Assembly (NCBI RefSeq): GCF_005938655.1
Contig: NZ_VCQT01000036.1
Span: forward strand, 1 to 64,000
Length of the DNA: 64,000 nucleotides
Direction: 5' to 3'
DNA from: Alloalcanivorax gelatiniphagus
Lineage (GTDB): Bacteria; Pseudomonadota; Gammaproteobacteria; Pseudomonadales; Alcanivoracaceae
Notes under the pieces: model-generated
Database searches by the model: none
What the model was told of the DNA's origin: nothing
The model's input: the letters and a program-made list of their open reading frames with translations, nothing else
Program-made: the position numbers and the translations under genes
In this document: positions 5,020 through 56,020 of the stretch, one piece after another
How positions within the stretch are numbered: the first letter of the stretch is position 1
Layout of the letters: the number at the start of each line of letters is the position of its first letter

Positions 5020-5176
5020 GAGTTACAAGTTGAAAGTTAAAAGTTGAAGCGCGGACCGGTCGCCAGTGGTCAGCCCGGCCATGCCCGCGCTCAGGCAAGG
5101 CACGCTCCCGGCCAAAGGCCGCGGGGCATGCGATGCTGCTGCGACCTTTCAACTTTTAACTTTCAACTTGTAACTC
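5020..5176. repeat. Heptad inverted-array element A (perfect 29-bp arms)
   Basis: The left arm (5020-5048) consists of contiguous 7-bp units AGTTACA, AGTTGAA, AGTTAAA, AGTTGAA preceded by G. The right arm (5148-5176) is its exact reverse complement. The 99-bp GC-rich spacer has no ORF. The element lies in the divergent interval between guaB and xseA. Confidence 0.9.
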
Positions 5177-5233
5177 GGCCCTCCCGCAGCGCCCGGCTTG
5201 CCGCCAGCGCCACGCCGCCGTACATTGCGCGCC

Positions 5234-6580
5234 ATGGATCCTTCATCGCGCAGCCAACCGTATTCCGTCAGCCGCTTGAACCTGGAAGCCCAGGGCCTGC
5301 TGGAGGGCACCTTCCCCTTGATCTGGCTTCAGGGGGAGCTGTCCAATCTGGCGCGGCCCCGTTCCGGGCACCTGTATTTCAGCCTCAAGGACGATCGGGC
5401 CCAGGTTAGCGGGGCCATGTTTCGAAATCGTAACAGCCTGCTGCGGTTCCAGCCCCGGGATGGGCAGCAGGTGCTGGTGCGGGCGCGCATCACCCTGTAT
5501 GTGCCCCGGGGTGGTTTCCAGATCATCGTCGAGCATATGGAAGAGGCCGGTGAAGGCGCTCTGCGGGCGCAGTTCGAGGCGCTCAAGGCGAAGCTGGAGG
5601 CGGAGGGGCTGTTCGCCCAGGAGCGTAAGCGCCCACTTCCCGCCTGGCCCAGGCAAATCGGGGTGATCACCAGCCCCAGCGGGGCGGCGGTCCGGGATAT
5701 TCTGCACGTGCTGCAGCGCCGGGCGCCGTCGATTCCGGTGCTGATTTTCCCCACCCCGGTGCAGGGCGCCGAAGCGCCGGCGCAGATCCGCGCCGCCCTG
5801 GAGCGGGCCACCGCCCGGGGCGATTGCGATGTGCTGGTGCTGGGACGCGGCGGCGGCAGTCTGGAGGATCTGTGGGCGTTCAATGACGAGGCCCTGGTGC
5901 GGGCGGTGGCGGCCAGTCCGGTGCCGGTGGTCAGCGCCGTGGGCCATGAGGTGGACGTGGCGCTCACCGATTTCGCGGCGGACGTGCGGGCACCCACGCC
6001 ATCGGCGGCGGCGGAGCTGATCAGCCCGGACGGCGAGGCGCTGTTGCAGCGCCTGCGGGTGCTGGCGCGCCGCCAGCGGCACGGCATGGACGTTGCTTTG
6101 AAGAGCCAGCGCCAGCGGTTGGACGGGCTGGCCCGGCGGCTGCAGGTGCGCCACCCGGAGCGGCAACTGGAACAGACCCGGCAGCTGGTGGACGAGCAGC
6201 AGGTCCGCATGGCCCGGGCCCTGAGCCATAAGCTGACGTTGTTGCAGAGCCGCTGGCGGCCCCTGGACGTGCGCCTGCGCCAGCAGTCGCCGGCCCAGCA
6301 GGTGACCCGCCAGGCCCAGCGGCTGGCGGAGTTGCGCCGGCGGCTGCCGGTGCCGCTGTCCCATCAGCAACGCCATCTGGCCCAGCGCCTCTCCGGCCTG
6401 GGCCATCGCCTCAATACCGCCAGCCCCCTGGCCACCCTGGACCGGGGCTATTCCTTGACGTTGGTGGCCGGCGAGCCGCTGCGGTCGGTGGAGGGCCTCC
6501 AGGAAGGCCAGACCGTGGAGACGCGGCTGGCCAAGGGGTCCTTCGAGGCCACCGTCACCCGCGTTAAACCCCCGAAGTAA
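5234..6580 (+). CDS. xseA: Exodeoxyribonuclease VII large subunit
   Basis: This is the large subunit of ExoVII, which with XseB degrades single-stranded DNA from both ends. The 448-residue protein has an N-terminal OB-fold (YSVSRLN... to about residue 105), then the catalytic core with the GVITSPSGAAVRDI motif near 145 and the GRGGGSLEDLWAFNDE motif near residue 205. A long basic coiled-coil region and a C-terminal DRGYSL segment complete the family architecture. I chose the ATG at 5234 because translation from further upstream adds only arginine-rich residues. No xseB is in the window. It is divergent from guaB. Confidence 0.97.
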   Translation: MDPSSRSQPYSVSRLNLEAQGLLEGTFPLIWLQGELSNLARPRSGHLYFSLKDDRAQVSGAMFRNRNSLLRFQPRDGQQVLVRARITLYVPRGGFQIIVEHMEEAGEGALRAQFEALKAKLEAEGLFAQERKRPLPAWPRQIGVITSPSGAAVRDILHVLQRRAPSIPVLIFPTPVQGAEAPAQIRAALERATARGDCDVLVLGRGGGSLEDLWAFNDEALVRAVAASPVPVVSAVGHEVDVALTDFAADVRAPTPSAAAELISPDGEALLQRLRVLARRQRHGMDVALKSQRQRLDGLARRLQVRHPERQLEQTRQLVDEQQVRMARALSHKLTLLQSRWRPLDVRLRQQSPAQQVTRQAQRLAELRRRLPVPLSHQQRHLAQRLSGLGHRLNTASPLATLDRGYSLTLVAGEPLRSVEGLQEGQTVETRLAKGSFEATVTRVKPPK

Positions 6581-6595
6581 TTCGAATCCCCCCCT

Positions 6596-6719
6596 GTAGG
6601 AGCGACTTCAGTCGCGATTACGGCGGTTGGTCTTTGCTTTCAGACCCTATCGCGACTGAAGTCGCTCCTACCGGGGGTTTTGGTTGGCTTTAGGTGCTCG
6701 CGACTGAAGTCGCTCCTAC
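6596..6719. repeat. REP-like cluster, three copies
   Basis: Three copies of the CGACTTCAGTCG-type REP palindrome occur: one forward at 6596 and two inverted at about 6649-6671 and 6699-6719. They fill the gap between the convergent genes xseA and the hybrid kinase, and may act as a bidirectional terminator. Confidence 0.85.
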
Positions 6720-6758
6720 AGGGTGCCAGGGTGCCAGGGCGCCGGTGAGCCGGGGGGC

Positions 6759-8630
6759 TCAGGCGGCGGGGAGGAAGCGGCTGAGGAGGTTGGCGAGCAG
6801 GTGGCGGCGGAACGGTTTGGCGAGGTGGGCGTCCATGCCGGCGGCGAGGCAGCGTTGGCGCTCTTCGAACATGGCGTTGGCGGTGAGCGCCACGATGGGC
6901 ACCGGGTCGCGGCTGCCTTCCCGTTCCCGGCGGCGCAGGGCGCGGGTGGCTTCCAGGCCGTCCATGACCGGCATCTGCACGTCCATAAGGATGCAGTCGA
7001 AGCGCTGTTCCGAGGCCATCGCCAGGGCGCTGGCGCCGTCGCCGGCGGTGACCACCTCCAGGCCCAGGTGCTCGAGCATGCGCCGGGCCACCAGCCGGTT
7101 CACCTCGTTGTCTTCCACCAGCAGCACCCGGCCACTCAACTGGCCCACGGTGACCGACAGCGCCGGGGCGCCGGCGTGCAGGGTGGGCCGGGTGCGCAGG
7201 CGCAGGCTGAGGGTAAAACAGCTGCCCTGCCCCTGCTCGCTGATCAGGGTCAGGTCGCCGCCGAGAATCTGCGCCAGCCGCCGGGCGATCACCAGGCCCA
7301 GGCCGGTGCCGCCGTGGCGTCGCGACGGCGACGAGTCCAGCTGCGAGAACGCCTGGAACAGCTTGCCCCGCTCCGCCTCGGCGATGCCCACGCCGGTGTC
7401 GCGCACGTCGATGGCCAGGTCGATGGTGTGCTCCTGCTGGTACATAACGCTGACCTGCACGCGGATGCCGCCCTGGTCGGTGAACTTCACCGCGTTGGAA
7501 ATCAGGTTGCTGAGAATCTGCCGCAGGCGCACCGGGTCGGAACATACCTCCAGGTCCGCCAGGCAGTCGGCGCCCTCCAGGTTCAGGTAGAGCCCCTTTT
7601 CCCGGGCCAGGTAACGGAAGGTATTGACGCAGTTGTTGAGCACCGGCAGCGGGTCGAAGAAGGTTTGCTCCACTTCCATGCGGCCGGCTTCGATGCGCGA
7701 GAAGTCGAGGATGTCGTTGATCACTTCCAGCAGGTGGCCGGTGGATTCCAGGGCGGCCTGGGTGTATTCGCGCTGTTCGTCGTTTTGCGGGGTGGTTTCC
7801 AGCAGTTGCAGCATGCCCAGCACGCCGTTCATGGGGGTGCGCAGCTCGTGGCTCATCATCGCCAGGAAGTCGCTTTTCGCCTGGCTGGCCTGCTCCGCCT
7901 GGCGGTGGGCGTCGCGCAGGTCGGCGATCGCCTTGCGCTGGTTGGTGCGGGCCCGCTCCAGGCCGTCCGCCAGGTCGTTGATGTTGGTTTGCAGGTCGGC
8001 CAGTTCGCCGTCCAGCCGGCGGTCGCCCCGGGCCTCATAGTCGCCGCCGCGAATCACCCGCACCAGCCGGGTCAGGTGCACCAGCGGCTCGGCGATGGCA
8101 CGGGCCAGATAGCGGGCGCTGAGCAGCCCCACCAGCACCGCGAACAGGGCCGGCAGCAGGCTGGCCAACAGGATTTCCTTCTGGCGGGCCAGAATCCGGC
8201 CCCGGGACAGCCCCAACACGACCTCGCCGATGCGGTCCGGAGCGGCGCCATTGGCGGTATCACCGGTGAACAGCACCGGCTGGCGGTAGATGCCGGCGCG
8301 GAACTCCAGCACCGCGCCGTCACCGGCGCCCTCCCCGGCACTGAGCAGCAGCTGGCCGTTTTCATCCAGGAATTTCACCCGGCGCACGTCCGGGCGCTCC
8401 AGCACCATGCGCGCCTGGCGGCTCAGATCCGAGGCGTTGCCGGACAGCACGCCGTACTCGGCGCTGGCGGCCAGTTGCTGGGCCAGAAAGCCGCCCAGTT
8501 GGCGCACTTCCTTGTCCACGTCCTGAAAGCGCTGCCAGGTGAGCGCCACCAGTACCAGCACCAGCATGATCAGCGCCGGAATCACGCCCAGCCACTGCAG
8601 CTGGCGGCGAATGCCGTTGTGGGTCCTCAT
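6759..8630 (-). CDS. Membrane-bound hybrid sensor histidine kinase
   Basis: This is a BarA-like hybrid kinase of 623 residues. An N-terminal membrane helix (about 14-34), a periplasmic sensor region, a second helix (about 165-185) and a HAMP-type linker precede a HisKA domain. The phospho-accepting His261 lies in AMMSHELRTPMNG. The HATPase domain has the N, G1 (DTGVGI) and G2 (GGTGLGL) boxes, and the C-terminal receiver domain carries Asp550 in LMDVQMPVMDG. There is no C-terminal HPt domain, so a separate phosphotransfer protein is needed. It begins 10 bases after the upstream binding-protein gene ends, implying co-transcription and a ligand relay. The start MRTHNGIRRQ is chosen because earlier in-frame codons overlap that gene. 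Confidence 0.93.
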   Translation of the reverse strand: MRTHNGIRRQLQWLGVIPALIMLVLVLVALTWQRFQDVDKEVRQLGGFLAQQLAASAEYGVLSGNASDLSRQARMVLERPDVRRVKFLDENGQLLLSAGEGAGDGAVLEFRAGIYRQPVLFTGDTANGAAPDRIGEVVLGLSRGRILARQKEILLASLLPALFAVLVGLLSARYLARAIAEPLVHLTRLVRVIRGGDYEARGDRRLDGELADLQTNINDLADGLERARTNQRKAIADLRDAHRQAEQASQAKSDFLAMMSHELRTPMNGVLGMLQLLETTPQNDEQREYTQAALESTGHLLEVINDILDFSRIEAGRMEVEQTFFDPLPVLNNCVNTFRYLAREKGLYLNLEGADCLADLEVCSDPVRLRQILSNLISNAVKFTDQGGIRVQVSVMYQQEHTIDLAIDVRDTGVGIAEAERGKLFQAFSQLDSSPSRRHGGTGLGLVIARRLAQILGGDLTLISEQGQGSCFTLSLRLRTRPTLHAGAPALSVTVGQLSGRVLLVEDNEVNRLVARRMLEHLGLEVVTAGDGASALAMASEQRFDCILMDVQMPVMDGLEATRALRRREREGSRDPVPIVALTANAMFEERQRCLAAGMDAHLAKPFRRHLLANLLSRFLPAA

Positions 8631-8640
8631 GAGGGAAGGC

Positions 8641-9591
8641 TCATGGCGTGTTCTCCAGGGTGCGTTCCAGGCGGATTCCCGGGGTGACACTGAGGTCGTA
8701 GGCCCGGGCCACGTGGTCGTTGATCACCAGGTGATAGTGGCCGGCGAAGCCCGGCTCCTGCCAGCGGCCGGTGGCGCGCCATTGCGCCACCCAGCGCCGC
8801 ACCGCGCGGACCAGGTCGTCGCTGTTGGGCACCGCGCTGGCGACGCTGCCGGCGTGCACATAGTCGGCGTCCGGGCCGAATACCGGCACCCGCTGGCGGT
8901 AGCTGGTGAGCAGCACCAGCCGGGCGGTGCCGGGGCCGAACAGGATCGGGTCCGTGGGCAGCAGCAAGGCGTCCCAATCCGGCAGTTGGCGCCGCAACAG
9001 CGGCCCGAGACGCTGGGGCGGGTCCACCGCGATCACATCCAGTATCAGGCCCGGCGGTGCCACCAGCGGTGCCTGCCAGGCACTGTGCGGCCCAAGCATC
9101 ACGCCGATACGGCGGGCGGCGGGCATCAACTCGCTGAGCACCGCCAACTGCGCCGCCAGGGACGCCCCGGCGCGAATCGCCGAACAGCGGCAGCCGGCGG
9201 TGACCTGCTCGCGCACCCGGTCGGTGGTCACGCCCACCCCCAGCACCGGCCCGTGACCCGGCGCCGACAGGGCCATGCGGAAGGCCTCATCGCCCAGGGC
9301 CAGGGTCAGCTCCGCGTCCCGCTCCACCACCCGCACGGCGCCGTCGCCGAGGGCGCGCAAGCGGTCGGCGAAGTGGGTGGCCGCCTCCGGGGAAGCGGCC
9401 AGCAGGCGCGCCGTCACCGCCGGCGCCGGCGTTTGCGCCGCGGCCTCCCCGGCCAGCCCCCAGACCAGCAGCCACGCCGCCAGCATCAGCGACAGCGAGC
9501 ACCGGCCCGCCGGTGCCCGCCATAATGGCGGGCCGGGCCGCGGTCGGGCCCGGCTCAAGCGTCCTCCTTTGCTGGCTGTCGCGTCCTTCAT
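8641..9591 (-). CDS. Periplasmic ABC-type substrate-binding protein (PF04392-like)
   Basis: This 316-residue protein has an arginine-rich N-terminus and then a hydrophobic segment (about 32-52) ending in an Ala-rich cleavage-like site, consistent with export. The rest resembles the ABC_sub_bind (TrpX-type) family of periplasmic two-lobed binding proteins: a Rossmann-like half with MPAARRIGVMLGP and a second half with VFGPDADYVHAGSVAS. No permease or ATPase is adjacent, so it probably does not serve an importer. It sits between a TonB-dependent receptor and a hybrid kinase in one unit and may present a ligand to the kinase. The signal peptide could also start at an internal Met near residue 36. 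The ligand is unknown. Confidence 0.75.
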   Translation of the reverse strand: MKDATASKGGRLSRARPRPGPPLWRAPAGRCSLSLMLAAWLLVWGLAGEAAAQTPAPAVTARLLAASPEAATHFADRLRALGDGAVRVVERDAELTLALGDEAFRMALSAPGHGPVLGVGVTTDRVREQVTAGCRCSAIRAGASLAAQLAVLSELMPAARRIGVMLGPHSAWQAPLVAPPGLILDVIAVDPPQRLGPLLRRQLPDWDALLLPTDPILFGPGTARLVLLTSYRQRVPVFGPDADYVHAGSVASAVPNSDDLVRAVRRWVAQWRATGRWQEPGFAGHYHLVINDHVARAYDLSVTPGIRLERTLENTP

Positions 9592-9628
9592 GCCGGGTCC
9601 CTGCCGGGCACCTTGCCCAGGCTGTCTG

Positions 9629-11755: not shown

Positions 11756-11776
11756 GATTCGTCCCCCGTTCCCACC

Positions 11777-11848
11777 GCAGGAGCGGCTTCAGCCGCGACC
11801 ACCGAAGCGTCCCGGCTCGGCCGTTATCGCGGCTGAAGCCGCTCCTAC
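11777..11848. repeat. REP-like inverted pair
   Basis: CAGGAGCGGCTTCAGCCGCGA and its inverted partner ATCGCGGCTGAAGCCGCTCCTAC are separated by about 30 bases, between the der stop and the receptor gene start. Both flanking genes are on the minus strand. Confidence 0.85.
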
Positions 11849-11860
11849 TTGGGCAACATA

Positions 11861-13270: not shown

Positions 13271-13331
13271 TGGGGCTCGATCAGGGTGGCAATGGTGATT
13301 ACCGGGCAGGATACAGGCGTGGGGGGATTCT

Positions 13332-13554
13332 AGCTACAAGCTGCAAGCCGCCGACGCGTCGAACAACGCGGCGGTAGGAGCGGCTTTAGCCGCGATGGGC
13401 GGTCGGGGGGGGGGGTTATCGCGGCTAAAGCCGCTCCTACAAAACGGCGATGGGCGGTCGAGGGGGGTTATCGCGGCTGAAGCCGCTCCTACAAAAAAAG
13501 GGGACGCTGCAAGCACGGCCTGCTTGCAGCTTGAGGCTTGTAGCTTGGGGCTAG
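13332..13554. repeat. Heptad inverted-array element E with REP copies nested inside
   Basis: The left arm (13332-13348) has units AGCTACA, AGCTGCA, AGC. The right arm (about 13521-13554), read on the minus strand, has units AGCCCCA, AGCTACA, AGCCTCA, AGCTGCA, AGC. The first unit of the right arm shares its AG with the bamB TAG stop codon. Three REP arms (13374-13493) lie between the heptad arms, so one repeat family is nested within the other. Confidence 0.85.
13374..13493. repeat. REP-like cluster with a local tandem duplication
   Basis: One forward REP (GTAGGAGCGGCTTTAGCCGCGAT) and two inverted copies occur here. The last two sit in a direct repeat of about 55 bases that starts GATGGGCGGTCG and ends in the inverted REP, indicating recent duplication. 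Confidence 0.85.
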
Positions 13555-16644: not shown

Positions 16645-16671
16645 CGGTGCTCCTTGTTCTGGATTGCGCCT

Positions 16672-16728
16672 GATCGCGGCTGAAGCCGCTCCCACGGAGA
16701 CGTGGTAGGAGCGGCTTCAGCCGCGATC
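16672..16728. repeat. REP-like inverted pair, compact
   Basis: GATCGCGGCTGAAGCCGCTC and its inverted copy are separated by a short ACG-GAGA-CGT loop, giving an almost uninterrupted 57-bp hairpin between ispG and hisS. Confidence 0.85.
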
Positions 16729-16744
16729 AAGCGCCATGATTCGA

Positions 16745-26265: not shown

Positions 26266-26381
26266 AGTTGAAAGTTACAAGTTAAAAGTTGAAAGGCCAC
26301 CCGGGAAGCGCGGCGCCCTGCCTGCCCGGCTGGCAATGCCGCCGAACCGCGTTGTCACTTTTAACTTTTAACTTTCAACTT
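26266..26381. repeat. Heptad inverted-array element B
   Basis: The left arm (26266-26293) is AGTTGAA, AGTTACA, AGTTAAA, AGTTGAA. The right arm (about 26357-26381), read on the minus strand, is AGTTGAA, AGTTAAA, AGTTAAA, AGTG. The spacer is about 62 bases. The last CTTGC of the right arm region (26379-26383) pairs with GCAAG (26389-26393), which overlaps the AAGG of the sufA ribosome-binding site. Confidence 0.9.
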
Positions 26382-26771: not shown

Positions 26772-27338
26772 TTGAACATCCCTGCCGGCGGCCGCGCCAC
26801 TGAACAGCGCACCGTGGTGGTGAGCCGCGACGTGCCCGCGCGCCTGGTGCCCGACGGCACCCGCATCACCATCAACAAGAACAGCTTCGTCAATCTGCGC
26901 CAGGCCCTGGGCGGCACCTACACGGTGACCCTGAACGGCAACATGGCGCGCATCGACGGCACCGACGCCGACGCCATCGGCCAGACTCCGCTGGAGCTGG
27001 ACTTCGAGCCGCCGGCGGAAGACGGCTCGGTGCGCGACGACGAGCTCTGGAAAACCCTGGCCACCATCTACGACCCGGAAATTCCGGTGAACATCGTCGA
27101 TCTGGGCCTGGTGTACGGCTGCGACGTGATCCGCCGCGATGACAACAACGTGGTGCAGGTACGCATGACCCTCACCGCCCCTAACTGCGGCATGGGCCCG
27201 GTGCTGGTGGGCGACGTGGAAGACCGGCTGGCCAAGGTACCGAACGTGGACGCGGTGGAAGTGGCGTTGATCTTCGATCCGCCCTGGAGCCGCGACATGA
27301 TGACCGAGGAAGCCCAGCTCGAACTGGGATTATTTTAG
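26772..27338 (+). CDS. sufT: Putative Fe-S assembly protein SufT (DUF59/MIP18)
   Basis: The 188-residue protein has an N-terminal beta domain and a C-terminal MIP18/DUF59 domain (DDELWKTLATIYDPEIPVNIV...LTAPNCGMGPVLVGDVE) with the conserved Cys of TAPNCGMG. SufT is an auxiliary maturation factor for Fe-S proteins. The start is TTG at 26772, one base after the sufA stop, with GAGG upstream; no ATG fits. The TAG stop is shared with the first unit of a heptad repeat. Confidence 0.92.
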   Translation: MNIPAGGRATEQRTVVVSRDVPARLVPDGTRITINKNSFVNLRQALGGTYTVTLNGNMARIDGTDADAIGQTPLELDFEPPAEDGSVRDDELWKTLATIYDPEIPVNIVDLGLVYGCDVIRRDDNNVVQVRMTLTAPNCGMGPVLVGDVEDRLAKVPNVDAVEVALIFDPPWSRDMMTEEAQLELGLF

Positions 27339-27427
27339 CTGCAAGCTTCAAGCTACAAGCTGCAAGCTTTGAAGAACCGCCGAGCGCGGCTTGAAGCTTG
27401 TAGTTTGCGGCTTGTAGCTTGCGGCTC
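27337..27427. repeat. Heptad inverted-array element F
   Basis: The left arm (27337-27370) is AGCTGCA, AGCTTCA, AGCTACA, AGCTGCA, AGC; its first AG belongs to the sufT TAG stop. The right arm (about 27387-27427), read on the minus strand, is AGCCGCA, AGCTACA, AGCCGCA, AACTACA, AGCTTCA, AGCCGC. The spacer is only about 16 bases. Confidence 0.9.
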
Positions 27428-37916: not shown

Positions 37917-38120
37917 CCCGACCCGCCGTGCCCCGCCCCGGGGCGCGGCGCACCACAACGGACCTCCCTCCGGCCCCATCGCGGCCCACTCCGCCCCCGC
38001 CTTACCCGGCTTCCTCCTTGCAAATCAGCGGCTTGCCCACCCTGGCACCGGACTTGCGTAGTTCCATCCAGGAATCGAATGGCACAGTCGCCATCACGAC
38101 TCGGACAATTTGGAAAAATG

Positions 38121-38212
38121 GATCGCTAGGGTTCCGGTGGGCTGCGCCCACGACTGGTCCGAGAGCGATCGACCTTCTAGCAAGGTTACACGGCGGGACA
38201 AAAGCCCGGGAG
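38121..38212 (+). promoter_or_regulatory. Guanidine-I (ykkC) riboswitch aptamer
   Basis: The class consensus elements are all present and in order: CTAGGGTTCCG (38126-38136), ACTGGTCCGAGAG (38153-38165), ACACGG, and CGGGACAAAAGCCCGGGAG (38192-38210). P1 is GATCGC (38121-38126) paired with GCGATC (38165-38170), and a second helix is ACCTT/AAGGT (38172-38186). It senses free guanidinium and switches on guanidine-handling genes, matching the operon that follows. There is no T-run downstream and the 3' GGGAGG is a Shine-Dalgarno sequence, suggesting translational control. Confidence 0.95.
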
Positions 38213-38218
38213 GACACC

Positions 38219-41014: not shown

Positions 41015-41761
41015 ATGCAAACCCCGCTCTACCAATACACCCTGCCCGGCGGCGCGCACTGGTCCTTCCGCATGCGCCGTGGCACCGCCCTGCGTCTCAC
41101 CGACCTGGAAGGCGGCGCCAACGTGGGCATGCTGTTCTATAACCCGGAGGAAAAACTGGAGCGCTACAACGCCCCGGACAGCCTCAAGGGCCAGCACACC
41201 TTCAAACTCACCAAAGGCAACTGCCTGTACTCGGACATGGGCCGGGTGTTCGCGTCCATCGTCGAGGACAGCTTCGGCTGGCACGACACCGTGTGCGGCA
41301 ACCTGCATCCGCAACAGGTGAAGGAAAAGTACGGCGAGCACCGCTACCAGGACCACCATAACGACTGGTACCTGAGCGGCCACACCAGCTTCCTCACCGA
41401 ACTGGCCAAGTACGGCCTCACCGAACGGGACCTGGCCGCCAACCTGAATCTGTTCAGCAAGGTGGCTACCGACGACGACGGCAAGATGTTCTTCGACCCC
41501 TCGGCGGCGAAAGCCGGCGCGCAAGTCACCTTGCGCTTCGAAATGGAAACCCTGGTGGTGATGCACACCTGCCCGCACCCGCTCAACCCGGCCAGCGAAT
41601 ACCCGAAAAAACCGGTGCACGTGGAAATGCTCAAGGCGGACCCGGTACAGCCGGACGACTACTGCCTGAACTTCCGCCCGGAGAACGGCCGCGCCTTCGA
41701 AAACAACCGGCTTTACTATCTGGAACCGGCTGCAGGCTTCAAGCCGCAAGCGACAAGCTGA
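41015..41761 (+). CDS. cgdA: Urea-carboxylase-associated protein 1 / carboxyguanidine deiminase subunit
   Basis: The 248-residue DUF1989-family protein has conserved segments [32 protein letters not shown] and [10 protein letters not shown], with His/Cys residues likely to bind metal. In guanidine-degrading bacteria this protein and its paralogue form the deiminase that turns carboxyguanidine into allophanate. Assignment of the letter A is by position. The last dozen codons are part of a heptad repeat arm, so the C-terminal tail ([10 protein letters not shown]) is probably repeat-derived. Confidence 0.88.
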
Positions 41762-41806
41762 AAAACGGCACTCACCTGCTTGCAGCTTGAGGCTTGTAGC
41801 CCCTGA
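41729..41806. repeat. Heptad inverted-array element G, left arm inside coding sequence
   Basis: The left arm (41729-41761) reads GGCTGCA, GGCTTCA, AGCCGCA, AGCGACA, AGCTGA and encodes the C-terminus and stop of the upstream gene. The right arm (about 41777-41806), on the minus strand, reads GGCTACA, AGCCTCA, AGCTGCA, AGCAG. The spacer is 15 bases. CTTGT in the right arm (41793-41797) can pair with ACAAG (41812-41816), enclosing the next gene's RBS. Confidence 0.85.
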
Positions 41807-42452: not shown

Positions 42453-42540
42453 CAGCGTTTTCCACCACGCCCCCGGGGACGACCCCGGCGCAAGGAAACA
42501 CAACGGCGGGACGGCCCGCCCAGGCAAGAGAGCCGACCTC

Positions 42541-49236: not shown

Positions 49237-49237
49237 G

Positions 49238-49417
49238 TCAGTGCGCCTCCACTTTTCGTTTACCGCAGCGTTCGCATTGATAGCGGGTCACCAGCTTGCC
49301 TTTCTGGCTGTCGAAGCGGGTACTTTTGACCACCTTCCACTTGTGAAAGCCGTGCTGGCACAGCCCCTTCTTGGGCTTCTTGCGGGCCGGCTTCTTGAAC
49401 GGGACAACCTCACCCAT
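49238..49417 (-). CDS. Small basic zinc-ribbon-like protein
   Basis: The 59-residue protein starts MGEVVPFKKPARKKPKKG and contains CQHGFHKWKVV and YQCERCGKRK, giving one CxxC pair plus Cys/His that may bind a metal. The N-terminus is strongly basic. I chose the ATG at 49417, preceded by GAGGTG; an earlier in-frame start at 49459 is less likely. It leads a three-gene overlapping unit with DUF1272 and the hydrolase. The function is unknown. Confidence 0.7.
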   Translation of the reverse strand: MGEVVPFKKPARKKPKKGLCQHGFHKWKVVKSTRFDSQKGKLVTRYQCERCGKRKVEAH

Positions 49418-49637
49418 CGCATCACCTCGTCGGAATAAACCGCCCACAGAATACCCCAACCGGCGGGCGCCGGTGTCAAAGGGAGGTCAGCGGCAGCGCC
49501 ACAAGGGGCCATTCCGCCGGCCGGACGGTGCCGGCGGCGTTGAGCACGCCGGTGTCGGTCAGGGATTGCCCGGGCCTGGTCTTTCTCCTCCTCGTTTCTG
49601 GTAGAGTCAGCGTCGTCGCGCCAGGGAAGTAAAACAA

Positions 49638-49652
49638 TTACCTGGTGGGTAA
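49638..49652. promoter_or_regulatory. Possible operator upstream of the XRE/MmyB regulator
   Basis: The inverted repeat TTACC, TGGTG, GGTAA lies 36 bases before the regulator start, a position suited to autoregulation. It is short, so it may be chance. Confidence 0.3.
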
Positions 49653-49687
49653 TGGACGGGTAGAGAACAGGATAAGGGAGCGCGGCG

Positions 49688-50464
49688 ATGGAACCGGGCA
49701 AGTTGCTTTCCGAGTGGCGCAAGACCCGCCGGCTCAGCCAGTTGGAGCTGGCCGCCCGGGCGGCGGTGTCGAGCCGCCACCTGAGTTTCGTGGAAACCGG
49801 CCGGGCCCGCGCCAGCGCCGGCCTGCTGCGGCGTCTGGCGGCGGCGCTGGACCTGAACTGCCGCGACACCAATGAGCTGCTGGTGGCCGCCGGCCACGCA
49901 CCGGTCTACGGCGAGACCCGCCTGGACGAGCCGGCCATGGCGCCGGTGCGCCAGGCCCTGGAAGTGATGCTCGACAACCACCAGCCCTACCCGGCCGGCG
50001 TGCTCGACGCCCACTGGAACCTGCTGCTGGCCAATACCGCCCTGCAGGGGCTGATCCAGGCCATGGTCGCCGAGGGCGGCCCGCTGCCGGACACCGGCAA
50101 TATCCTCGAGCTGGTGTTTCATCCGGACGGCTTCAAACCCTTTATCCTCAACTGGGATCTGGTCGCCTCGGCGCTGCTGCGGCGCCTGCGCCGGGACCTG
50201 GACCTGCGCCCGGACCCGCGGCTGCAACGGCTGTACCGGCGCCTGGAGGACCTGGCGGACCTGCCCGCCCTGCTCGGCGCCACGCCCACCAGCGTGGACC
50301 CCATGCTGACCTTGCAGATGATGGTCGGCGGCCGGCGCCTGACCACCTTCTCCACCCTGGCCAGCTTCGGCACCGCCATGGATGTGGTGATGGAGGAGCT
50401 GCGTATTGAGCATTATTTTCCCGCTGATGACGCAACCCGAGCGTTCTTCGAAGAGGCCGGTTGA
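49688..50464 (+). CDS. XRE-family regulator with MmyB-like ligand domain
   Basis: The 258-residue protein has an N-terminal HTH (LLSEWRKTRRLSQLELAARAAVSSRHLSFVETGRA, residues about 6-60). A MmyB-type PAS-like domain follows (HWNLLLANTALQGLI, NILELVFHPDGFKPFILNWD, MLTLQMMVGGRRLTTFSTLASFGT). Such regulators may bind fatty acids and control lipid or redox genes. The TGA stop lies inside the first unit of a heptad repeat. Confidence 0.88.
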   Translation: MEPGKLLSEWRKTRRLSQLELAARAAVSSRHLSFVETGRARASAGLLRRLAAALDLNCRDTNELLVAAGHAPVYGETRLDEPAMAPVRQALEVMLDNHQPYPAGVLDAHWNLLLANTALQGLIQAMVAEGGPLPDTGNILELVFHPDGFKPFILNWDLVASALLRRLRRDLDLRPDPRLQRLYRRLEDLADLPALLGATPTSVDPMLTLQMMVGGRRLTTFSTLASFGTAMDVVMEELRIEHYFPADDATRAFFEEAG

Positions 50465-50622
50465 AAGTTGAAAGTTAAAAGTTGAAGGCGCGCATGAAGC
50501 GATCGTGACGTCCGCCGACCGGTACGCGAAGTGGCATGGGAGTGACAGTCGCGCGGCGATAAAACATCCGCCGGCACGGGCTGTGCCGCGCGCTTTGAAC
50601 TTTCAACTTTCAACTTTTAACC
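50460..50622. repeat. Heptad inverted-array element C
   Basis: The left arm (50460-50486) is GTTGAA, AGTTGAA, AGTTAAA, AGTTGAA and contains the stop codon of the regulator gene. The right arm (about 50594-50622), on the minus strand, is GTTAAA, AGTTGAA, AGTTGAA, AGTTCAA, AG. The spacer is about 107 bases. Confidence 0.9.
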
Positions 50623-50703
50623 CGCCCGCCGGGCGCTTTCATCGCACCGACGCGGCCGAACCCGTATAATCCCGCTCCCGAATCCACCGGCCACAGGATA
50701 GCC

Positions 50704-53583
50704 ATGACCGAATTTACTCCCGGCCAGCGCTGGCTCAGCGAATCCGAGACCGAACTGGGGCTCGGCCTGATCAAGGAGGTGGACTACCGTCTGGTGACGG
50801 TCAGCTACCCGGCCGTGGAAGAAGAACGGACCTACGCGAAGAGCAACGCGCCGCTGTCGCGCATTACCTTCGACGTGGGCGACACCCTGACCACCGGCGA
50901 CGGTCTGGATCTGGTGGTCAAGGACGTGGAGGACCACAACGGCCTGATGGTCTACCACGCCCACCCCGCCGACGAGCCGGACAATGTGCAGCCGGTGCCG
51001 GAATCCCTGCTCGGCCATCGACTGCGCCTGAGCAACGCCCTGGACCGGCTGCTCACCAATCAGCTGTCGTCCAACCGCTGGTTCGAGCTGCGGGTGGCGG
51101 CGCTGGACGCCCGCGCCCACCGGGAAGGTTCACCGATCCAGGGGCTGCGCGGCCCGCGCATCGACCTGATCGGCCACCAGTTGTACATCGCCGACCAGGT
51201 GGCCCGCCGTTACGCCCCCCGGGTGCTGCTGGCCGACGAAGTGGGCCTGGGCAAAACCATCGAAGCGGGTCTGATCCTGCATCAGCAATTGGAAACCGGC
51301 CGCGCCCGCCGCGCCCTGATCGTGGTGCCCGATGCCCTGGTGCATCAGTGGTTCGTGGAAATGGCCCGCCGCTTCAATCTGCGCTTTTCCATTTTCGATG
51401 AAGAACGGCTCACCGCCCTGTCCCGCCCCAGCGTGGATGACGTCAAGGAAATGCTGGCGGACCTGTTCGCCGAGTCGGAGGGCGAAGGCGACGCGCCGGA
51501 GATCGACGACAACCCCTTCCTCTCCGAGCAGCTGGTGCTGTGCAGCACCGCCTTCCTGGAAGGCTGCGACATCGACAGCCTGGCCGCCGCCGACTGGGAC
51601 CTGGTGATCGTCGACGAGGCCCACCATCTGCACTGGACCCCGGAGGCGCCGTCCGAGGCCTACCGCCGGGTGGAGCAACTGGCCGCCGCCAGCCGGGGCC
51701 TGCTGCTGCTCACCGCCACCCCGGAACAGCTCGGCCTGGAGAGTCACTTCGCCCGCCTGCGCCTGCTGGACCCGGACCGCTACCCGGACCTGGACGCCTT
51801 CGTGGCGGAGCAGGAACGCTACCGGGAGGTGGCGGATCTGGTCGGCGAACTGCACGACCAGGAGAGCTGGCCGGCGGACCTGAAGCAGCGCGCCGCCGAG
51901 CTGCTGCCCGACGAAACCGTGGACGAAACCCACCGCCAGGCGGTGCTCGCCGAACTGCTGGACCGGTTCGGCCCGGGCCGGGTGATGTTCCGCAACACCC
52001 GCCACAATGTGGCCGGCTTCCCGGCCCGGCGGGTGCACGGCGAACCGCTGCCGCTGCCCGACAACTACCGGGTGGACGAGGACGAAGAGCTGGCCCTGCG
52101 CCTGTACCCGGAAGCCGGCTTCGGCGACGACCGCTGGTGCGGCGAGGACCCGCGGGTGGCCTGGCTGGAGCGTTTTCTCAAGGAGCACCGTGGCGACAAG
52201 GTGCTGGTGATCTGCGCGCGCCGCGACACCGCCATCGACCTGCACGCCCACTGCGGCTACAAGCTGGGCATGAATCTGGCCGTGTTCCATGAAGGCATGG
52301 ACCTGATCGAGCGGGACCGGGCGGCGGCCTATTTCGCCGACCACGAAGACGGCGCCCAGGCACTGATCTGCTCGGAAATCGGCTCCGAGGGCCGTAACTT
52401 CCAGTTCGCCCACCATCTGGTGCTGATGGACCTGCCCCTGGACCCGGACCTGCTGGAACAGCGCATCGGCCGCCTGGACCGCATCGGCCAGAGCGAGGAA
52501 GTGAAGATTCACGTGCCCTACTTCCAGGGCCACGCCCAGGAGGTGCTGTTCCAGTGGTACCACCAGGGCATGAACGCCTTCGAGCACACCAACCCGGCCG
52601 GCCATGAAATCCGCCAGCGCACCGCCGCGCCCCTGGAACAGGCCCTGACCCGGCCCGACGACGGCGCCGCCCTGGCAGCGCTGGTGGAGGTTACCCGCCG
52701 CGAGGCGGACGCGCTGCGCCAGCGCCTGGAGCAGGGCCGCGACCGGCTGCTGGAACTGGCCTCCTGCGATCCGGAGCGCGCCGACACCCTCAAGGAAACC
52801 CTGGCCACGGCGGACGCGGACAGCCCCTGGCCGTTCATGACCCGGGTGTTCGACCACTATGGCGTGGACCAGGAAGAACATTCCGAGGACGCCTGGATTC
52901 TCAAACCGGGCCCGCATCTGCGCGAACCGTTCCCGCATCTGCCGGAAGAAGGGGTCACCGTCACCGACCAGCGCGGCACCGCCATCGCCCGGGACGACAT
53001 GCAGTTTCTCACCTGGGAGCATCCGCTGGTGGGCGGCGCCCTGGACCTGATTCTCGATGAGCACCGGGGCAAGGCATCGGTGAGCCTGCTCAAGAATCCC
53101 AAGATCAAGGCCGGCACCCTGCTGGTGGAGGCGGTCTATACGGTGGAGCCGGTGGCCCCCCGCCATCTGCAAGCGGACCGCTTCCTGCCGGTGACCACGG
53201 TGCGCCGGCTGCTGGACGCCAATGGCCGCGATCTGTCCTCGGCGATCACCCACGACGCGCTCTGCAAGCAATGCCACAAGCTGGAAAAGCCCCTGGCGCG
53301 CAAGATCGTGGCCAGCCAGAAGGCGCTGCTGGAACAGCTGCTCAAGGACGACGAACGGAACGCCGCCGGGCAGGCCCGGGCGGTGATCGACGGCGCCCTG
53401 GCCACCATGCGCGACAGCCAGGACCAGGCGCTGCGCCGGCTGCGCGCCCTGCGTGACAAGAACCCGCTGGTCCGGGAGGAGGAAATCACCTACCTGGAAC
53501 GGCAGACCGAGGCCCTGGAAGAGCGCATCGGCGATGCCCGCTTCCGGCTGGAGGCGGTGCGCGTCATCGTCGCCGGCAACTGA
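50704..53583 (+). CDS. rapA: RNA polymerase-associated ATPase RapA (HepA)
   Basis: This Swi2/Snf2 ATPase recycles RNA polymerase after transcription. The 959-residue protein has N-terminal Tudor-like domains (to about 110) and helicase motif I LLADEVGLGKTIEAGLI near 178. Motif II is VIVDEAHHLHW near 303, with motifs V/VI in ICSEIGSEGRNFQFAHHLV and EQRIGRLDRIGQ, and the long C-terminal RapA-specific region completes it. TATAAT at 50665-50670 may be its -10 box. Confidence 0.97.
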   Translation: MTEFTPGQRWLSESETELGLGLIKEVDYRLVTVSYPAVEEERTYAKSNAPLSRITFDVGDTLTTGDGLDLVVKDVEDHNGLMVYHAHPADEPDNVQPVPESLLGHRLRLSNALDRLLTNQLSSNRWFELRVAALDARAHREGSPIQGLRGPRIDLIGHQLYIADQVARRYAPRVLLADEVGLGKTIEAGLILHQQLETGRARRALIVVPDALVHQWFVEMARRFNLRFSIFDEERLTALSRPSVDDVKEMLADLFAESEGEGDAPEIDDNPFLSEQLVLCSTAFLEGCDIDSLAAADWDLVIVDEAHHLHWTPEAPSEAYRRVEQLAAASRGLLLLTATPEQLGLESHFARLRLLDPDRYPDLDAFVAEQERYREVADLVGELHDQESWPADLKQRAAELLPDETVDETHRQAVLAELLDRFGPGRVMFRNTRHNVAGFPARRVHGEPLPLPDNYRVDEDEELALRLYPEAGFGDDRWCGEDPRVAWLERFLKEHRGDKVLVICARRDTAIDLHAHCGYKLGMNLAVFHEGMDLIERDRAAAYFADHEDGAQALICSEIGSEGRNFQFAHHLVLMDLPLDPDLLEQRIGRLDRIGQSEEVKIHVPYFQGHAQEVLFQWYHQGMNAFEHTNPAGHEIRQRTAAPLEQALTRPDDGAALAALVEVTRREADALRQRLEQGRDRLLELASCDPERADTLKETLATADADSPWPFMTRVFDHYGVDQEEHSEDAWILKPGPHLREPFPHLPEEGVTVTDQRGTAIARDDMQFLTWEHPLVGGALDLILDEHRGKASVSLLKNPKIKAGTLLVEAVYTVEPVAPRHLQADRFLPVTTVRRLLDANGRDLSSAITHDALCKQCHKLEKPLARKIVASQKALLEQLLKDDERNAAGQARAVIDGALATMRDSQDQALRRLRALRDKNPLVREEEITYLERQTEALEERIGDARFRLEAVRVIVAGN

Positions 53584-53606
53584 ACCGGCAAGCAAAGGAG
53601 AACAGC

Positions 53607-54257
53607 ATGGATTATCTGCCCTGCGTGGAACTGGACCCGCGACAACCCGCCGACTCCAGCGTGATCTGGCTGCACGGCCTGGGCGCCAGTGGCCACGACT
53701 TCGAGCCGGTGGTGCCGGAGCTGGGCCGCAAGAGCACCCGCTTCGTGTTTCCCCATGCCCCACAGATCCCGGTGACGGTGAACGGCGGCATGGTGATGCC
53801 GGCCTGGTATGACATCGTCAGCCTGGGCGGCAACGGCGCCGTGGACGAGGAAGGCATTCGCCGTTCCGCGGCCCAGCTGGATGCGCTGATCGAGCGGGAA
53901 ATCGAGCGTGGCGTGCCCGCCGAGCGGATCCTGGTGGCGGGCTTCTCCCAGGGCGGCGCGGTGGCCTATGAAGCGGCCCTGCGCCATCCGAAACGGCTGG
54001 CCGGGCTGATGGCGCTGTCCACCTACTTCGCCACCGCCGACAGCGTGGCGTTCAGCGAGGCCAACGCCGGCCTGCCGGTGTTCATCGCCCACGGCACCTT
54101 CGACCCGATGGTGCCGGAACAGGGCGGCCGCCGGGCGGCGGACACCCTGAGCGCCAAGGGTTACCCCACCGAGTACAAGACCTACCCGATGGAGCACGCG
54201 GTGTGCCTGGAAGAGATTCAGGACATTGCCGGCTTTTTGGCGCGGGTGTTTGATTAA
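53607..54257 (+). CDS. Carboxylesterase (phospholipase/thioesterase family, YpfH/EstB-like)
   Basis: The 216-residue alpha/beta hydrolase has VIWLHGLGASGHDFEPVVPEL, the nucleophile elbow GFSQGGAVA, Asp in GTFDPMVP and His in YPMEHAVCLEE. The family hydrolyses short-chain esters and, in some members, acyl-thioesters. It lies 23 bases after rapA with a good AAAGGAG. It is convergent with the dienelactone hydrolase gene; a REP pair fills the gap. Confidence 0.92.
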   Translation: MDYLPCVELDPRQPADSSVIWLHGLGASGHDFEPVVPELGRKSTRFVFPHAPQIPVTVNGGMVMPAWYDIVSLGGNGAVDEEGIRRSAAQLDALIEREIERGVPAERILVAGFSQGGAVAYEAALRHPKRLAGLMALSTYFATADSVAFSEANAGLPVFIAHGTFDPMVPEQGGRRAADTLSAKGYPTEYKTYPMEHAVCLEEIQDIAGFLARVFD

Positions 54258-54262
54258 CACCC

Positions 54263-54317
54263 ATCGCGGCTGAAGCCGCTCCTACAGGTTCACTTTGTAG
54301 GAGCGGCTTCAGCCGCG
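54263..54317. repeat. REP-like inverted pair between convergent hydrolases
   Basis: ATCGCGGCTGAAGCCGCTCC and its inverted copy face each other across about 10 bases. The right copy encodes the last codons and TGA stop of the minus-strand hydrolase gene. Confidence 0.88.
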
Positions 54318-55040
54318 AGCGCCAAACACCTCATCAAACAAATCATCCATGGCCGCGAAGGCGCGCCGCGCCACCTTGGGGTCGTACACCGAGCGCCCCG
54401 GGATATTGGCCCCCGGATCGGTGAACGAATGCACCGCCCCACCGAAATGGGTGAGCTGCCAGTCCGCCCCGGCGCCGTCCATTTCCGCCTTGAACGCCTT
54501 TAGTGAGTCCTCACTGACCATCGGGTCGTCGGCGCCATTCAGCACCAGCACACTGCCCTTCACCGCCCCGGCGGCCGGCGACGGCGTATCCAGCAATCCG
54601 TGGAAGCTGACAAAGGCGCGCAGGTCGGCGCCGTCCCGGGCCAGTTCCAGGGCACAGGCGCCGCCGAAACAGAAACCGAACATGGCCAGCCGGTCCCGGG
54701 CGATGCCCAGCTTGTCGGCCTGCTGCTCCAGCACCTCCAGGGCACCCCGCAGCCGTGCCCGCAGAGCGTCGTTGTCGGCCCGCGCTTCGCCCATGGCTTC
54801 CATGGCCTCATCCGGGTTCGCCGGGCGCACCTCCGCGCCGAACGGGTCGAGCACGAAAATCGCCCGGCTGTTGTCCAGGCACCGCTCCGCCTGGGCAATG
54901 GCGGCATCGCTGATGCCGAAAAAGTTGGGGGCCATCAGCAGGCCACGGCTGGGGCTGGCGCCGCGCAGGTACAGCAGGTGCCCCCGGAAAGTGCGGCCGT
55001 TCACTTGATAGTCGATGGCTTGATTGACGATATCGCTCAT
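54309..55040 (-). CDS. Dienelactone hydrolase-family protein (cytoplasmic)
   Basis: The 243-residue protein has the DLH catalytic set: Cys in GFCFGGACAL, Asp in NGADDPMVSED and His in GGAVHSFTDPGA. No signal peptide is seen. I chose the ATG at 55040 (MSDIVNQAIDYQ). The C-terminal ARG and the TGA stop are encoded by a REP repeat. The substrate is unknown. Confidence 0.9.
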   Translation of the reverse strand: MSDIVNQAIDYQVNGRTFRGHLLYLRGASPSRGLLMAPNFFGISDAAIAQAERCLDNSRAIFVLDPFGAEVRPANPDEAMEAMGEARADNDALRARLRGALEVLEQQADKLGIARDRLAMFGFCFGGACALELARDGADLRAFVSFHGLLDTPSPAAGAVKGSVLVLNGADDPMVSEDSLKAFKAEMDGAGADWQLTHFGGAVHSFTDPGANIPGRSVYDPKVARRAFAAMDDLFDEVFGARG

Positions 55041-55243
55041 TGCTTGTCTCCCGATAAAAACGCCCGCCATTAAACACTTCGTCACCTTGCACCCGCAAAC
55101 CGCCCGCCGGGCGCCACCCGCACCGGCATGGACATTTTCGGACCGAACCGACGGCGGCGGCGCCTCTCCACGAGAAATTCACGGAACCGAACCGGGCTGG
55201 CCCGCTCAAAAATGGAAATCATTGCCTTCCAGGAGCGCTCGCC

Positions 55244-55438
55244 ATGAACAAACTGGCCATCCAGGGTTTGATTGCCATCACTTCCGCCCTCTGGTTGCCC
55301 GCCCAGGCCGACCTGACCCGGGCGGCCTGGGACGGCGACAGCGCCGGCGAAACCCGTACCCTGACCGACGACGCCGCCGAGAACAGCCCGGTGCTGTTGC
55401 TGCCGGTGGCCGGCCGGGATCAGCGGGAAAAAGGTTAA
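55244..55438 (+). CDS. Small exported protein, unknown
   Basis: The 64-residue protein has a signal peptide (LIAITSALWLPAQA) followed by a short acidic mature part of about 42 residues. An AGGAG lies upstream of the ATG. No family is recognised; it could be a degraded remnant of a longer envelope protein. Confidence 0.5.
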   Translation: MNKLAIQGLIAITSALWLPAQADLTRAAWDGDSAGETRTLTDDAAENSPVLLLPVAGRDQREKG

Positions 55439-55718
55439 ATCCGAAAAACCGGCGTGCGGCCGTTCACACTTCCGCGCGGGGGCGGGAACACCCGCCGCGC
55501 GGCGGCCTCTGATTGCGTACCGACGGCGTCATTGTTGGTGGGCGCGAGGCCAGCAAGGAGGGCCAGGGAGCAAGGATGCGAGCGCTCAGCCGGCGTCGGC
55601 GGACCGAATCGAAGCGCTGATTCGAAAATTTCTCGGGACGGGTAAGCAAAATCGGGAACTTATTCCCGCTGGATGTGCACTAACCCAATGAGTCTCCCAA
55701 TATAATCAGGCAACCCTC
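55439..55718. other. Intergenic stretch without a supported gene
   Basis: Short ORFs here look unlike real proteins. A small hairpin CGGGAA, CTTA, TTCCCG lies near 55652-55667, and TATAAT at 55701-55706 sits just before a strong terminator. A short non-coding RNA is possible but unsupported. Confidence 0.3.
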
Positions 55719-55753
55719 CGGGCGCACAGCAAAGCTGGCGCCCTTCTTTTTTT
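55719..55753 (+). terminator. Rho-independent terminator
   Basis: The stem GGGCGCACAGC / GCTGGCGCCC (one mismatch region) with an AAA loop is followed by TTCTTTTTTT. It is oriented for plus-strand transcription and may end transcripts from the small gene at 55244 or an unannotated RNA. Confidence 0.8.
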
Positions 55754-55778
55754 GGGGCACCTTCTCCCCAAATGCCCC

Positions 55779-56020
55779 GTAGGAGCGGCTTCAGCCGCGA
55801 TCAGCCACCGGGAATCGCACACCCGTCCCAGTTCAAAGTTCAAAGTTAAAAGGTCCTGGCCGAACGGTCCATCAGCGGCCTTGGGCCGGGATCGGTCGGG
55901 CGGAGCCAGGAGTCTCCGAAGCGCGGGCACGGCCTCTCGCCCGCCCCGCACCAGCCCGCGTTTCAACTTTTCACTTTTAACTTTCAACTCCGGGTCAATC
56001 GCGACTGAAGTCGCTCCTAC
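55779..56020. repeat. Composite repeat: REP, heptad element D, REP
   Basis: A forward REP (55779-55801) and an inverted REP of the CGACTTCAGTCG subtype (55998-56020) flank a heptad element. Its left arm (55830-55852) is AGTTCAA, AGTTCAA, AGTTAAA, AGG. Its right arm (55961-55989), on the minus strand, is AGTTGAA, AGTTAAA, AGTGAAA, AGTTGAA. The nesting is the reverse of that at 13332-13554. Confidence 0.88.

What the first reader, a model, noticed from the sequence alone, without database searches (positions are those of the whole stretch)
5020..56020. Seven paired inverted arrays of contiguous 7-bp units, a possibly undescribed repeat family
At 5020-5176, 13332-13554, 26266-26381, 27337-27427, 41729-41806, 50460-50622 and 55830-55989 there are two facing arms built from 3-6 tandem heptamers, separated by 15-170 bases. 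Two flavours share one frame: AGTTGAA/AGTTAAA/AGTTACA/AGTTCAA (four loci) and AGCTGCA/AGCTACA/AGCTTCA/AGCCTCA/AGCCGCA (three loci), together AGYYNNA-like. At 5020-5176 the 29-bp arms are perfectly complementary, while the spacers share nothing obvious. They are not CRISPR (units abut), not REP, and carry no ORF. Exact heptamer phasing in both flavours suggests a common mechanism such as slippage plus arm correction, or a non-autonomous mobile hairpin. I cannot say whether this family has been named.
Basis: seen in the sequence. Interest (0 to 1): 0.8.

Follow-up and report, generated by a model that had tools for sequence, protein, structure and literature searches.

The report
Heptamer-armed hairpins of IVP elements
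The odd pairs of facing seven-letter repeats are the stem ends of small hairpin elements between genes, and the same paired arrays flank a little-understood gene (the "23S rRNA intervening sequence protein") in bacteria of many phyla, which gives that gene family a recognisable anatomy that can be tested.

Summary
The seven paired arrays belong to a genus-wide set of intergenic hairpins in several heptamer flavours, sometimes nested. Spacers are not random: 22 of 33 AGTT elements parsed in this genome share an ACGCG inner end. Key result: all 18 PF05635 genes found in the genus (23S-rRNA-IVP, four-helix bundle, "S23p") are flanked by the same kind of facing arrays. Of 191 usable IVP loci from many phyla, 140 have a clear 7- (124), 8- (15) or 9-base (1) period and 121 a facing inverted repeat. 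In the control test, period-7 signal was in 85 of 121 IVP flanks against 10 of 107 nearby stretches, facing repeats in 93 against 1. Arms peak at 30-32 nt, the 5' arm is usually G-rich, and the period follows the IVP protein tree. Best reading: IVS-type elements, the window copies lacking the ORF (MITE-like). RNase III excision is known for an rRNA IVS and only inferred here; how they move is unknown. "Arm correction" is not supported. A Coxiella 23S IVS paper notes heptamers; I found no general statement in the open-licence library searched.

The parts
5021..5048 (+). 5' arm, 4 x AGTTNMA (element 5021-5175)
5049..5147 (.). core with GCGCGG inner end, CCATGCCCGCGC box and GGCCAAAGGCCGCGG hairpin resembling other AGTT elements
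5148..5175 (-). 3' arm, perfect complement of the 5' arm; lies between an IMPDH gene (-) and an exonuclease VII large-subunit gene (+)
13332..13349 (+). 5' arm, AGCTACA AGCTGCA AGCC (element between bamB and der)
13374..13493 (.). REP-like hairpins (GTAGGAGCGGCTTTAGCCGCGATG type) inside the element; limits read by eye
   Evidence: REP name recalled
13525..13552 (-). 3' arm, AGCCCCA AGCTACA AGCCTCA AGCTGCA
26266..26293 (+). 5' arm, 4 x AGTTNMA, 8 bp after the sufS stop
26357..26381 (-). 3' arm, AGTT type; element absent from 10 relatives, homologous copy in G005, G007 not placed
27337..27368 (+). 5' arm, 4 x AGCTNCA; its first AG is the AG of the sufT stop codon TAG
27388..27426 (-). 3' arm, AGCY type, before a sufE-type gene; no array in G008, G010, G001, G002, G011
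41729..41763 (+). 5' arm, GGCTGCA GGCTTCA AGCCGCA AGCGACA AGCTGAA; contains the UAAP1 stop codon
41778..41800 (-). 3' arm, AGCY type, before UAAP2
50460..50486 (+). 5' arm, GGTTGAA AGTTGAA AGTTAAA AGTTGAA; first unit contains the stop of the upstream ORF
50592..50621 (-). 3' arm, AGTT type, before rapA
55830..55852 (+). 5' arm, AGTTCAA AGTTCAA AGTTAAA AGG
55961..55989 (-). 3' arm with ACGCGGG inner end

Best explanation
The paired heptamer arrays are the terminal stems of a bacteria-wide class of hairpin elements of the intervening-sequence (IVS) type. Coding members carry a PF05635 gene (23S rRNA IVP / S23p, a four-helix-bundle relative of DGR Avd). The seven window copies are ORF-less, MITE-like members that have multiplied in this genus. 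SHOWN: the association of arrays with IVP genes over many phyla and its rarity in control stretches, the peaked arm size of about 31 nt, the strand polarity (G-rich 5' arm), the agreement of unit length with the IVP protein tree, purifying selection on IVP, and lineage-specific presence or absence of elements. INFERRED: the transcript folds into a stem that RNase III can cut, so insertion between genes (or in rRNA) is nearly silent; the IVP protein recognises the stem or its purine strand through regularly spaced RG steps rather than a fixed sequence, and acts in trans on ORF-less copies. The step that moves the DNA is not known; this genome has no PF00078 reverse transcriptase hit, so a resident RT of that family is not needed.
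For: All 18 PF05635 genes found in 13 genus genomes have facing short-unit arms by eye, 17 of 18 by score. Lag-7 score >=10 in IVP flanks: 15/18, 48/75, 22/28 (genus, named, class sets) against 0/16, 7/68, 3/23 in stretches 900-1200 bp away and 0/18, 2/75, 0/28 in simulated flanks; facing repeats 17/18, 52/75, 24/28 against 0/16, 1/68, 0/23 and none in simulated flanks. Second set of 70 loci at the thresholds: 51 of 66 usable with period 7 or 8, 41 of 66 with facing repeat. Pooled: 140 of 191 with a period, 121 of 191 with facing repeat; 42 of 54 clusters at 60% identity. G>C in the 5' arm in 69 of 80 and 38 of 41 loci with a facing repeat. Arm length median 31, 64 of 206 at 30-32 nt. Period 7 against 8/9 needs 7 changes on the IVP tree, shuffles mean 12.3, 0 of 300 as low. 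dN/dS 0-0.29 in the 14 of 15 ortholog pairs where it could be computed. AGTTRAY-flavour arrays occur elsewhere in all 8 genomes that have the AGTTRAY IVP; of the 5 without, four show the locus flanks only and G004 has one further match not shown in the capped list. Same nrdR slot: IVP element in 8 genomes, short AGTT element in G000 and G005, short GGAT element in G003, G009, G004. Four other short AGTT elements share the inner end AGGGCGGC with the IVP element. RNase III excision of an IVS with a 28-bp stem and (GACAGAT)2-3: PMC4990558 (abstract and passages).
Against: 51 of 191 IVP loci show no clear period and 70 no strong facing repeat. Period-7 signal is not nil in the control stretches (10 of 107). 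Flavour match is not strict: G005, G003 and G006 have many AGTTNNA arrays although their IVP elements have other flavours, and G004 has arrays but no IVP hit. Most short AGTT elements have a core (ACGCG type) that does not resemble the IVP element's ends. No target-site duplication was seen by eye and no insertion event was caught between near-identical strains. The eight AGTTRAY genomes share the IVP at one locus and are not independent. RNase III cutting, IVP binding and movement were not tested. No IVP gene was seen in the 64-kb window: the only hit in this genome is on another contig.
Confidence: 0.73

Rival explanations
1. The hairpins are a self-standing REP/REPIN-like family moved by a RAYT or other transposase, and IVP genes are passengers caught between two arms.
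For: Array matches far outnumber IVP genes; flavours are not strictly tied to the resident IVP; REP-like hairpins share the same slots.
Against: The arrays surround IVP genes in many phyla and unit length follows the IVP tree, which a passenger would not be expected to produce. In 428 kb of array-selected genus sequence the one coding interior I recognised was IVP; pairs listed there more than 592 bp apart look like cross-pairs of neighbouring elements and what lies between them was not examined. RAYT was not searched.
Confidence: 0.13
2. Host regulatory hairpins (attenuators, terminators or mRNA stabilisers) whose arms grew by 7-nt slippage.
For: They lie at stop codons and between genes, all seven fold with paired arms, and one AGCT subfamily has 4-16 identical units in its 5' arm.
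Against: No terminator-like stem overlaps any of the seven (loop limit 3-8; the tail of one match, stem 27313-27328, touches the first two bases of the 27337 arm); counts range from 0 to 253 three-unit matches among species of one genus; the same slot holds different flavours or nothing in relatives; IVP link.
Confidence: 0.08
3. Slippage plus arm-to-arm correction.
For: 29-bp perfect complementarity at 5020; both arms of the IVP element differ in flavour together between species at one locus.
Against: Arms of one element agree no better than arms of different elements (0.367 against 0.351); unit number is four in 48 of 66 arms.
Confidence: 0.04
4. RT-dependent retroelement, a degenerate DGR or similar, with IVP in the role of Avd.
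For: PF05635 resembles Avd (PMC10053308, passages; weak hits to bAvd and DivGenRetAVD for one of two proteins).
Against: No PF00078 hit in G000, G002, G004, G005, G007, G010, and G000 and G005 have the highest AGTT and AGCT counts (G009 equals G005 for AGTT). The RT hits of the other seven genomes were not examined for linkage.
Confidence: 0.06

Closest known systems
Intervening sequence (IVS) of 23S rRNA with S23p ORF, as in Coxiella burnetii (PMC4990558, abstract and passages seen)
   Same: S23p ORF enclosed by an inverted-repeat stem of about 28 bp; tandem heptamers (GACAGAT) upstream of the ORF with variable number; RNase III excision shown there.
   Different: Here the elements lie between protein genes; none of the 20 IVP loci scanned, nor the window, has an rRNA match; arrays stand on both sides; many copies lack the ORF; several flavours and nesting.
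DGR accessory protein Avd
   Same: PF05635 is described as resembling Avd (PMC10053308, passages); solved IVP relatives 2GSC and 2RLD are each listed with 5 chains.
   Different: No PF00078 RT in this genome; template and variable repeats were not searched for.
REP/REPIN elements of Pseudomonas (recalled)
   Same: Many short intergenic hairpins that share slots and nest.
   Different: Arms are abutting heptamers; the REP-like hairpins of this genome are separate sequences.
TAACTGA heptamer direct repeats of Beggiatoaceae and others (PMC4679880, abstract and passages seen)
   Same: Tandem heptamers, mostly intergenic; on the other strand they read as AGTTATC units, like the arms of IVP locus L132.
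   Different: Direct arrays, mostly in one orientation upstream of start codons; one inverted case; the terms for IVS or S23 do not occur in that paper's text.
MITEs
   Same: Short, ORF-less, inverted ends, many copies, with a few copies that share an end with a coding element.
   Different: No transposase and no target-site duplication identified.

Membership tests
23S rRNA IVS element | S23p/PF05635 ORF inside | tested here: not met
   Window copies have no such ORF: the only PF05635 hit of this genome is on contig 15, in an AGTT-armed element (L040).
23S rRNA IVS element | lies within a 23S rRNA gene | tested here: not met
   No rRNA match at gathering score in the window or in any of 20 class IVP loci; the other 177 of 197 IVP loci were not scanned.
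23S rRNA IVS element | terminal inverted repeat forming a long stem | tested here: met
   Seven of seven window elements; 121 of 191 IVP loci.
23S rRNA IVS element | excised by RNase III | not testable with these tools
   Shown for the Coxiella rRNA IVS in the cited paper.
MITE of an IVP element | shares ends with a coding element | tested here: inconclusive
   33 AGTT elements have the arm type of the IVP element (which is one of them); the inner end AGGGCGGC is shared by 4 others only.
MITE of an IVP element | target-site duplication and clean empty site | tested here: inconclusive
   Empty or nearly empty sites in relatives, but flanks are only about 77-97% alike and no duplication was seen by eye.
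REP/REPIN | REP palindrome in the repeat unit | tested here: not met
   Arms are abutting heptamers; REP features are recalled.
REP/REPIN | linked RAYT transposase | not tested
   No RAYT search was made.
CRISPR | direct repeats with unique spacers | tested here: not met
   Units abut.
Intrinsic terminator | GC stem, short loop, T tract | tested here: not met
   No terminator-like stem overlaps any of the seven; the whole hairpins exceed the scan's loop limit.
Diversity-generating retroelement | reverse transcriptase | tested here: not met
   No PF00078 hit in G000.

The most novel reading that the evidence does not exclude
A bacteria-wide class of mobile hairpins without transposase or RT, driven by a ring-forming IVP protein whose five subunits each read one RG step spaced 7 (or 8) nt along the purine strand of the arm, so that unit length and the five-step arm are set by protein geometry and not by sequence. 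This would explain why the sequence flavour drifts freely while period, polarity and arm size stay nearly fixed.
Probability: 0.3. Interest if true: 0.93.

Novelty: new variant of a known kind. Interest (0 to 1): 0.8.

Why it matters
PF05635 is a widespread family named only for its place in some rRNA genes, and its role is open. A diagnostic anatomy (facing arrays of about 31 nt, 7-8-nt units, G-rich 5' arm) makes coding and ORF-less copies easy to look for in any genome, explains a class of unnamed intergenic repeats, and gives direct binding and excision tests. Agreement of repeat period with the protein tree points to protein-repeat coevolution.

Tried and rejected
Arm correction: not supported. 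Random spacers: rejected. Resident RT: no hit for G000. Known Rfam family: none matches the arrays of the window or of L003, L004, L008, L012, L014 at gathering score. Strict flavour match between IVP and short arrays: nearly holds for AGTTRAY, fails for AGTTNNA. The two IVP copies L223 and L224 looked like a recent transposition but are identical over all 3,324 bases fetched, so uninformative. The count of exactly five in-register RG steps is the mode on both arms in the first set (22 and 26 of 76) but in the second set only on the 3' arm (17 of 48; the 5' arm is spread over 3-6 with its mode at 6, 11 of 48), so it is kept as a lead. Period-8 arms are longer (median 36 against 31) but few and scattered (26 arms). 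My first choice of IVP frames was wrong in some loci and was replaced by hmmsearch.

Rows dropped before counts: one search used 126 of 127 loci; one search used 121 of 127 for the test and 107 of 127 for the control stretches (full 300-bp flanks needed); one search used 125 of 127; one search used 66 of 70; one search used 121 of 127 proteins (100-159 aa); arm lengths are from 206 of 248 arms of period-7 loci (score of at least 9).
Full report
WHAT IS IN THE WINDOW. All seven loci are as described. With perfect units only (A-G-Y-Y-N-N-A, at least three), the window has 10 runs; 50 first-order Markov simulations and the reversed sequence have none. The seven fold as hairpins closed by their arms. 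They lie at or next to gene ends: between IMPDH and an exonuclease VII gene, between bamB and der, sufS and a sufA-type gene, sufT and a sufE-type gene, UAAP1 and UAAP2, an ORF without NCBIfam hit and rapA, and near a DUF1820 gene. In three of the seven the stop codon of the upstream ORF falls in or overlaps the 5' arm (27337, 41729, 50460).

THE WHOLE GENOME AND GENUS. (AGTTNNA)x3 has 253 matches in this genome against 18 for the backwards control; a four-unit arm gives two matches, so this is not a count of hairpins. Over 13 genomes of the genus (this one included) counts run from 0 (four genomes) to 253. (AGCTNCA)x3 has 97 matches here and 154 in G005; (GGATNCA)x3 up to 39; controls are 0 in both. 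I fetched 20 stretches of this genome (19 around listed AGTT matches and one next to the window) and parsed 33 AGTT elements in them and the window, one of them with the IVP gene. 22 of 33 have the inner end ACGCG at one or both ends, and an alignment of 32 shows a common core in many. 48 of 66 arms have exactly four units. Elements can be nested: AGTT elements inside AGCT arms (L003, L008), REP-like hairpins inside the AGCT element at 13332, GGATNCA units inside AGCT arms in G010. In L298 and L303 an AGTT 5' arm lies after an AGCT 5' arm, its partner not seen in the stretch fetched.

EMPTY AND RE-USED SITES. The 26266 element is absent from ten relatives (8-45 bp between the matched flanks) and a homologous one is in G005. 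The 27337 site has 2 and 6 bp between the matched flanks in G008 and G010 and 37 bp without array in G001, G002 and G011; it holds a homologous AGCT element in G005, a REP-like hairpin in G003 and G006, CACGC-unit arms in G009 and G004 and RGACGCY arms in G012. G007 could not be placed at either site. I saw no target-site duplication by eye. These comparisons show presence or absence, not the direction of change.

THE LINKED GENE. One parsed element had a 400-bp interior with an ORF that is PF05635. A search for PF05635 found 18 genes in 12 of 13 genus genomes, one of them in this genome. Printing the flanks of all 18 showed facing short-unit arms around each, in the flavours AGTTNMA, AGYYNCA, GGATNCA, RGACGCY, AGTTRAY and a 7/8-nt CACGC type. 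At the cysC locus (adenylyl-sulfate kinase) the IVP gene has AGTT arms in G000 and G009, AGCT arms in G008, G010 and G005, GGAT arms in G006, and is missing in G003, G004 and G007. At the nrdR locus eight genomes have an IVP element with AGTTRAY arms, G000 and G005 a short AGTT element, and G003, G009 and G004 a short GGAT element in the same gap. Array matches of the AGTTRAY type elsewhere occur in those eight genomes; of the other five, four show only the two flanks of the locus and G004 has one further match that the capped list does not show.

HOW GENERAL. With 300-bp flanks, lag-7 self-similarity of at least 10 was found in 15/18, 48/75 and 22/28 loci; in stretches 900-1200 bp away in 0/16, 7/68, 3/23; in simulated flanks in 0/18, 2/75, 0/28. 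Facing repeats of score 14 or more: 17/18, 52/75, 24/28 against 0/16, 1/68, 0/23 and none in simulated flanks. With gene-based flanks and a stricter period rule the first set gave 89 of 125 with a period and 80 of 125 with a facing repeat. A second set of 70 loci, fetched after the rule was set, gave period 7 in 48 and 8 in 3 of 66 usable, facing repeats in 41 of 66; it is not fully independent, since a few of its loci are relatives of first-set loci (L192 of L138, L195 of L155). Pooled: 124 with period 7, 15 with 8, 1 with 9, 51 unclear, 6 too short, of 197; single-linkage clusters at 60% protein identity: 42 of 54 have a period in at least half of their members. Many loci are related, so the cluster count is the safer one.

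RULES OF THE ARMS. In facing arms of score 14 or more the 5' arm has G>C in 69 of 80 loci (C>G in 7) and in 38 of 41 (C>G in 2; second set). Segment length at lag 7 has median 31 and 64 of 206 arms fall at 30-32 nt, close to four units plus three bases, or five in-register RG steps; a tail of arms reaches 191 nt. Period-8 arms have median 36 (26 arms, scattered). On an IVP tree of 121 proteins (few columns, 50 of 118 inner branches open) the change between period 7 and 8/9 is needed 7 times, against a mean of 12.3 in 300 shuffles, none as low; inside Bacteroidota the relaxed call gives 4 against 7.9, 1 of 300 as low, and the strict against 5.4, 14 of 300 as low. IVP orthologs have dN/dS of 0 to 0.29 in 14 of 15 pairs, one pair saturated and some with high dS.

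MECHANISM. The anatomy is that of the 23S rRNA IVS: an S23p ORF in a long stem. The Coxiella paper (abstract and passages) reports a 28-bp stem, RNase III excision, and two or three GACAGAT heptamers before the ORF. I infer that elements between genes are tolerated because the stem is cut or ignored in mRNA. That the protein reads the arms is inferred from the period-tree agreement and from the near constancy of period, polarity and length while the sequence changes; a five-subunit ring (2GSC and 2RLD list five chains each) would suit five RG steps, but the five-step count replicated on the 3' arm only. No PF00078 RT was found in this genome. The mobilising step is unknown.

LITERATURE. Ten searches of the open-licence PMC library gave the Coxiella paper as the only one in which I saw heptamers named in an IVS, and MacGregor's TAACTGA repeats (PMC4679880, abstract and passages) as the nearest repeat family. 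PMC10053308 (passages) states the PF05635-Avd resemblance; in the passages of PMC8700078 that I saw there was nothing on repeats next to the gene. The other listed papers were not opened (PMC4853749, which has the word heptamer, among them). Subscription papers and preprints are not held, so prior description cannot be excluded.

Noticed in passing
window 1310-1373 (-): Match to type II hammerhead ribozyme (Rfam, 41.9 bits, gathering 37).
   Followed up: no
window 38115-38214 (+) and 42471-42519 (+): Guanidine-I and guanidine-II riboswitch matches on either side of the UAAP1/UAAP2 genes.
   Followed up: no
window 13374-13493, 16663-16737, about 55780: REP-like hairpins of the GTAGGAGCGGCTTTAGCCGCGATG type, with many matches in the genus.
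   Followed up: partly
L296-L304 (G000 C18, C20, C22, C26, C27, C30:90550-90950, C41): AGCT subfamily whose 5' arm has 4 to 16 identical AGCTGCA units while the 3' arm stays short; most of the nine share a core; AGCTNCA matches are mostly on one contig strand (83 forward, 14 reverse).
   Followed up: partly
L022 (G009 C10), against L021 (G003): 269-bp insertion with long GGGCCTGTTCACAC inverted ends at a CTAG site, an ordinary-looking MITE.
   Followed up: no
L132 and PMC4679880: The TAACTGA repeats of Beggiatoaceae read on the other strand as AGTTATC units, like the arms of IVP locus L132; they may be single arms of the same class.
   Followed up: no
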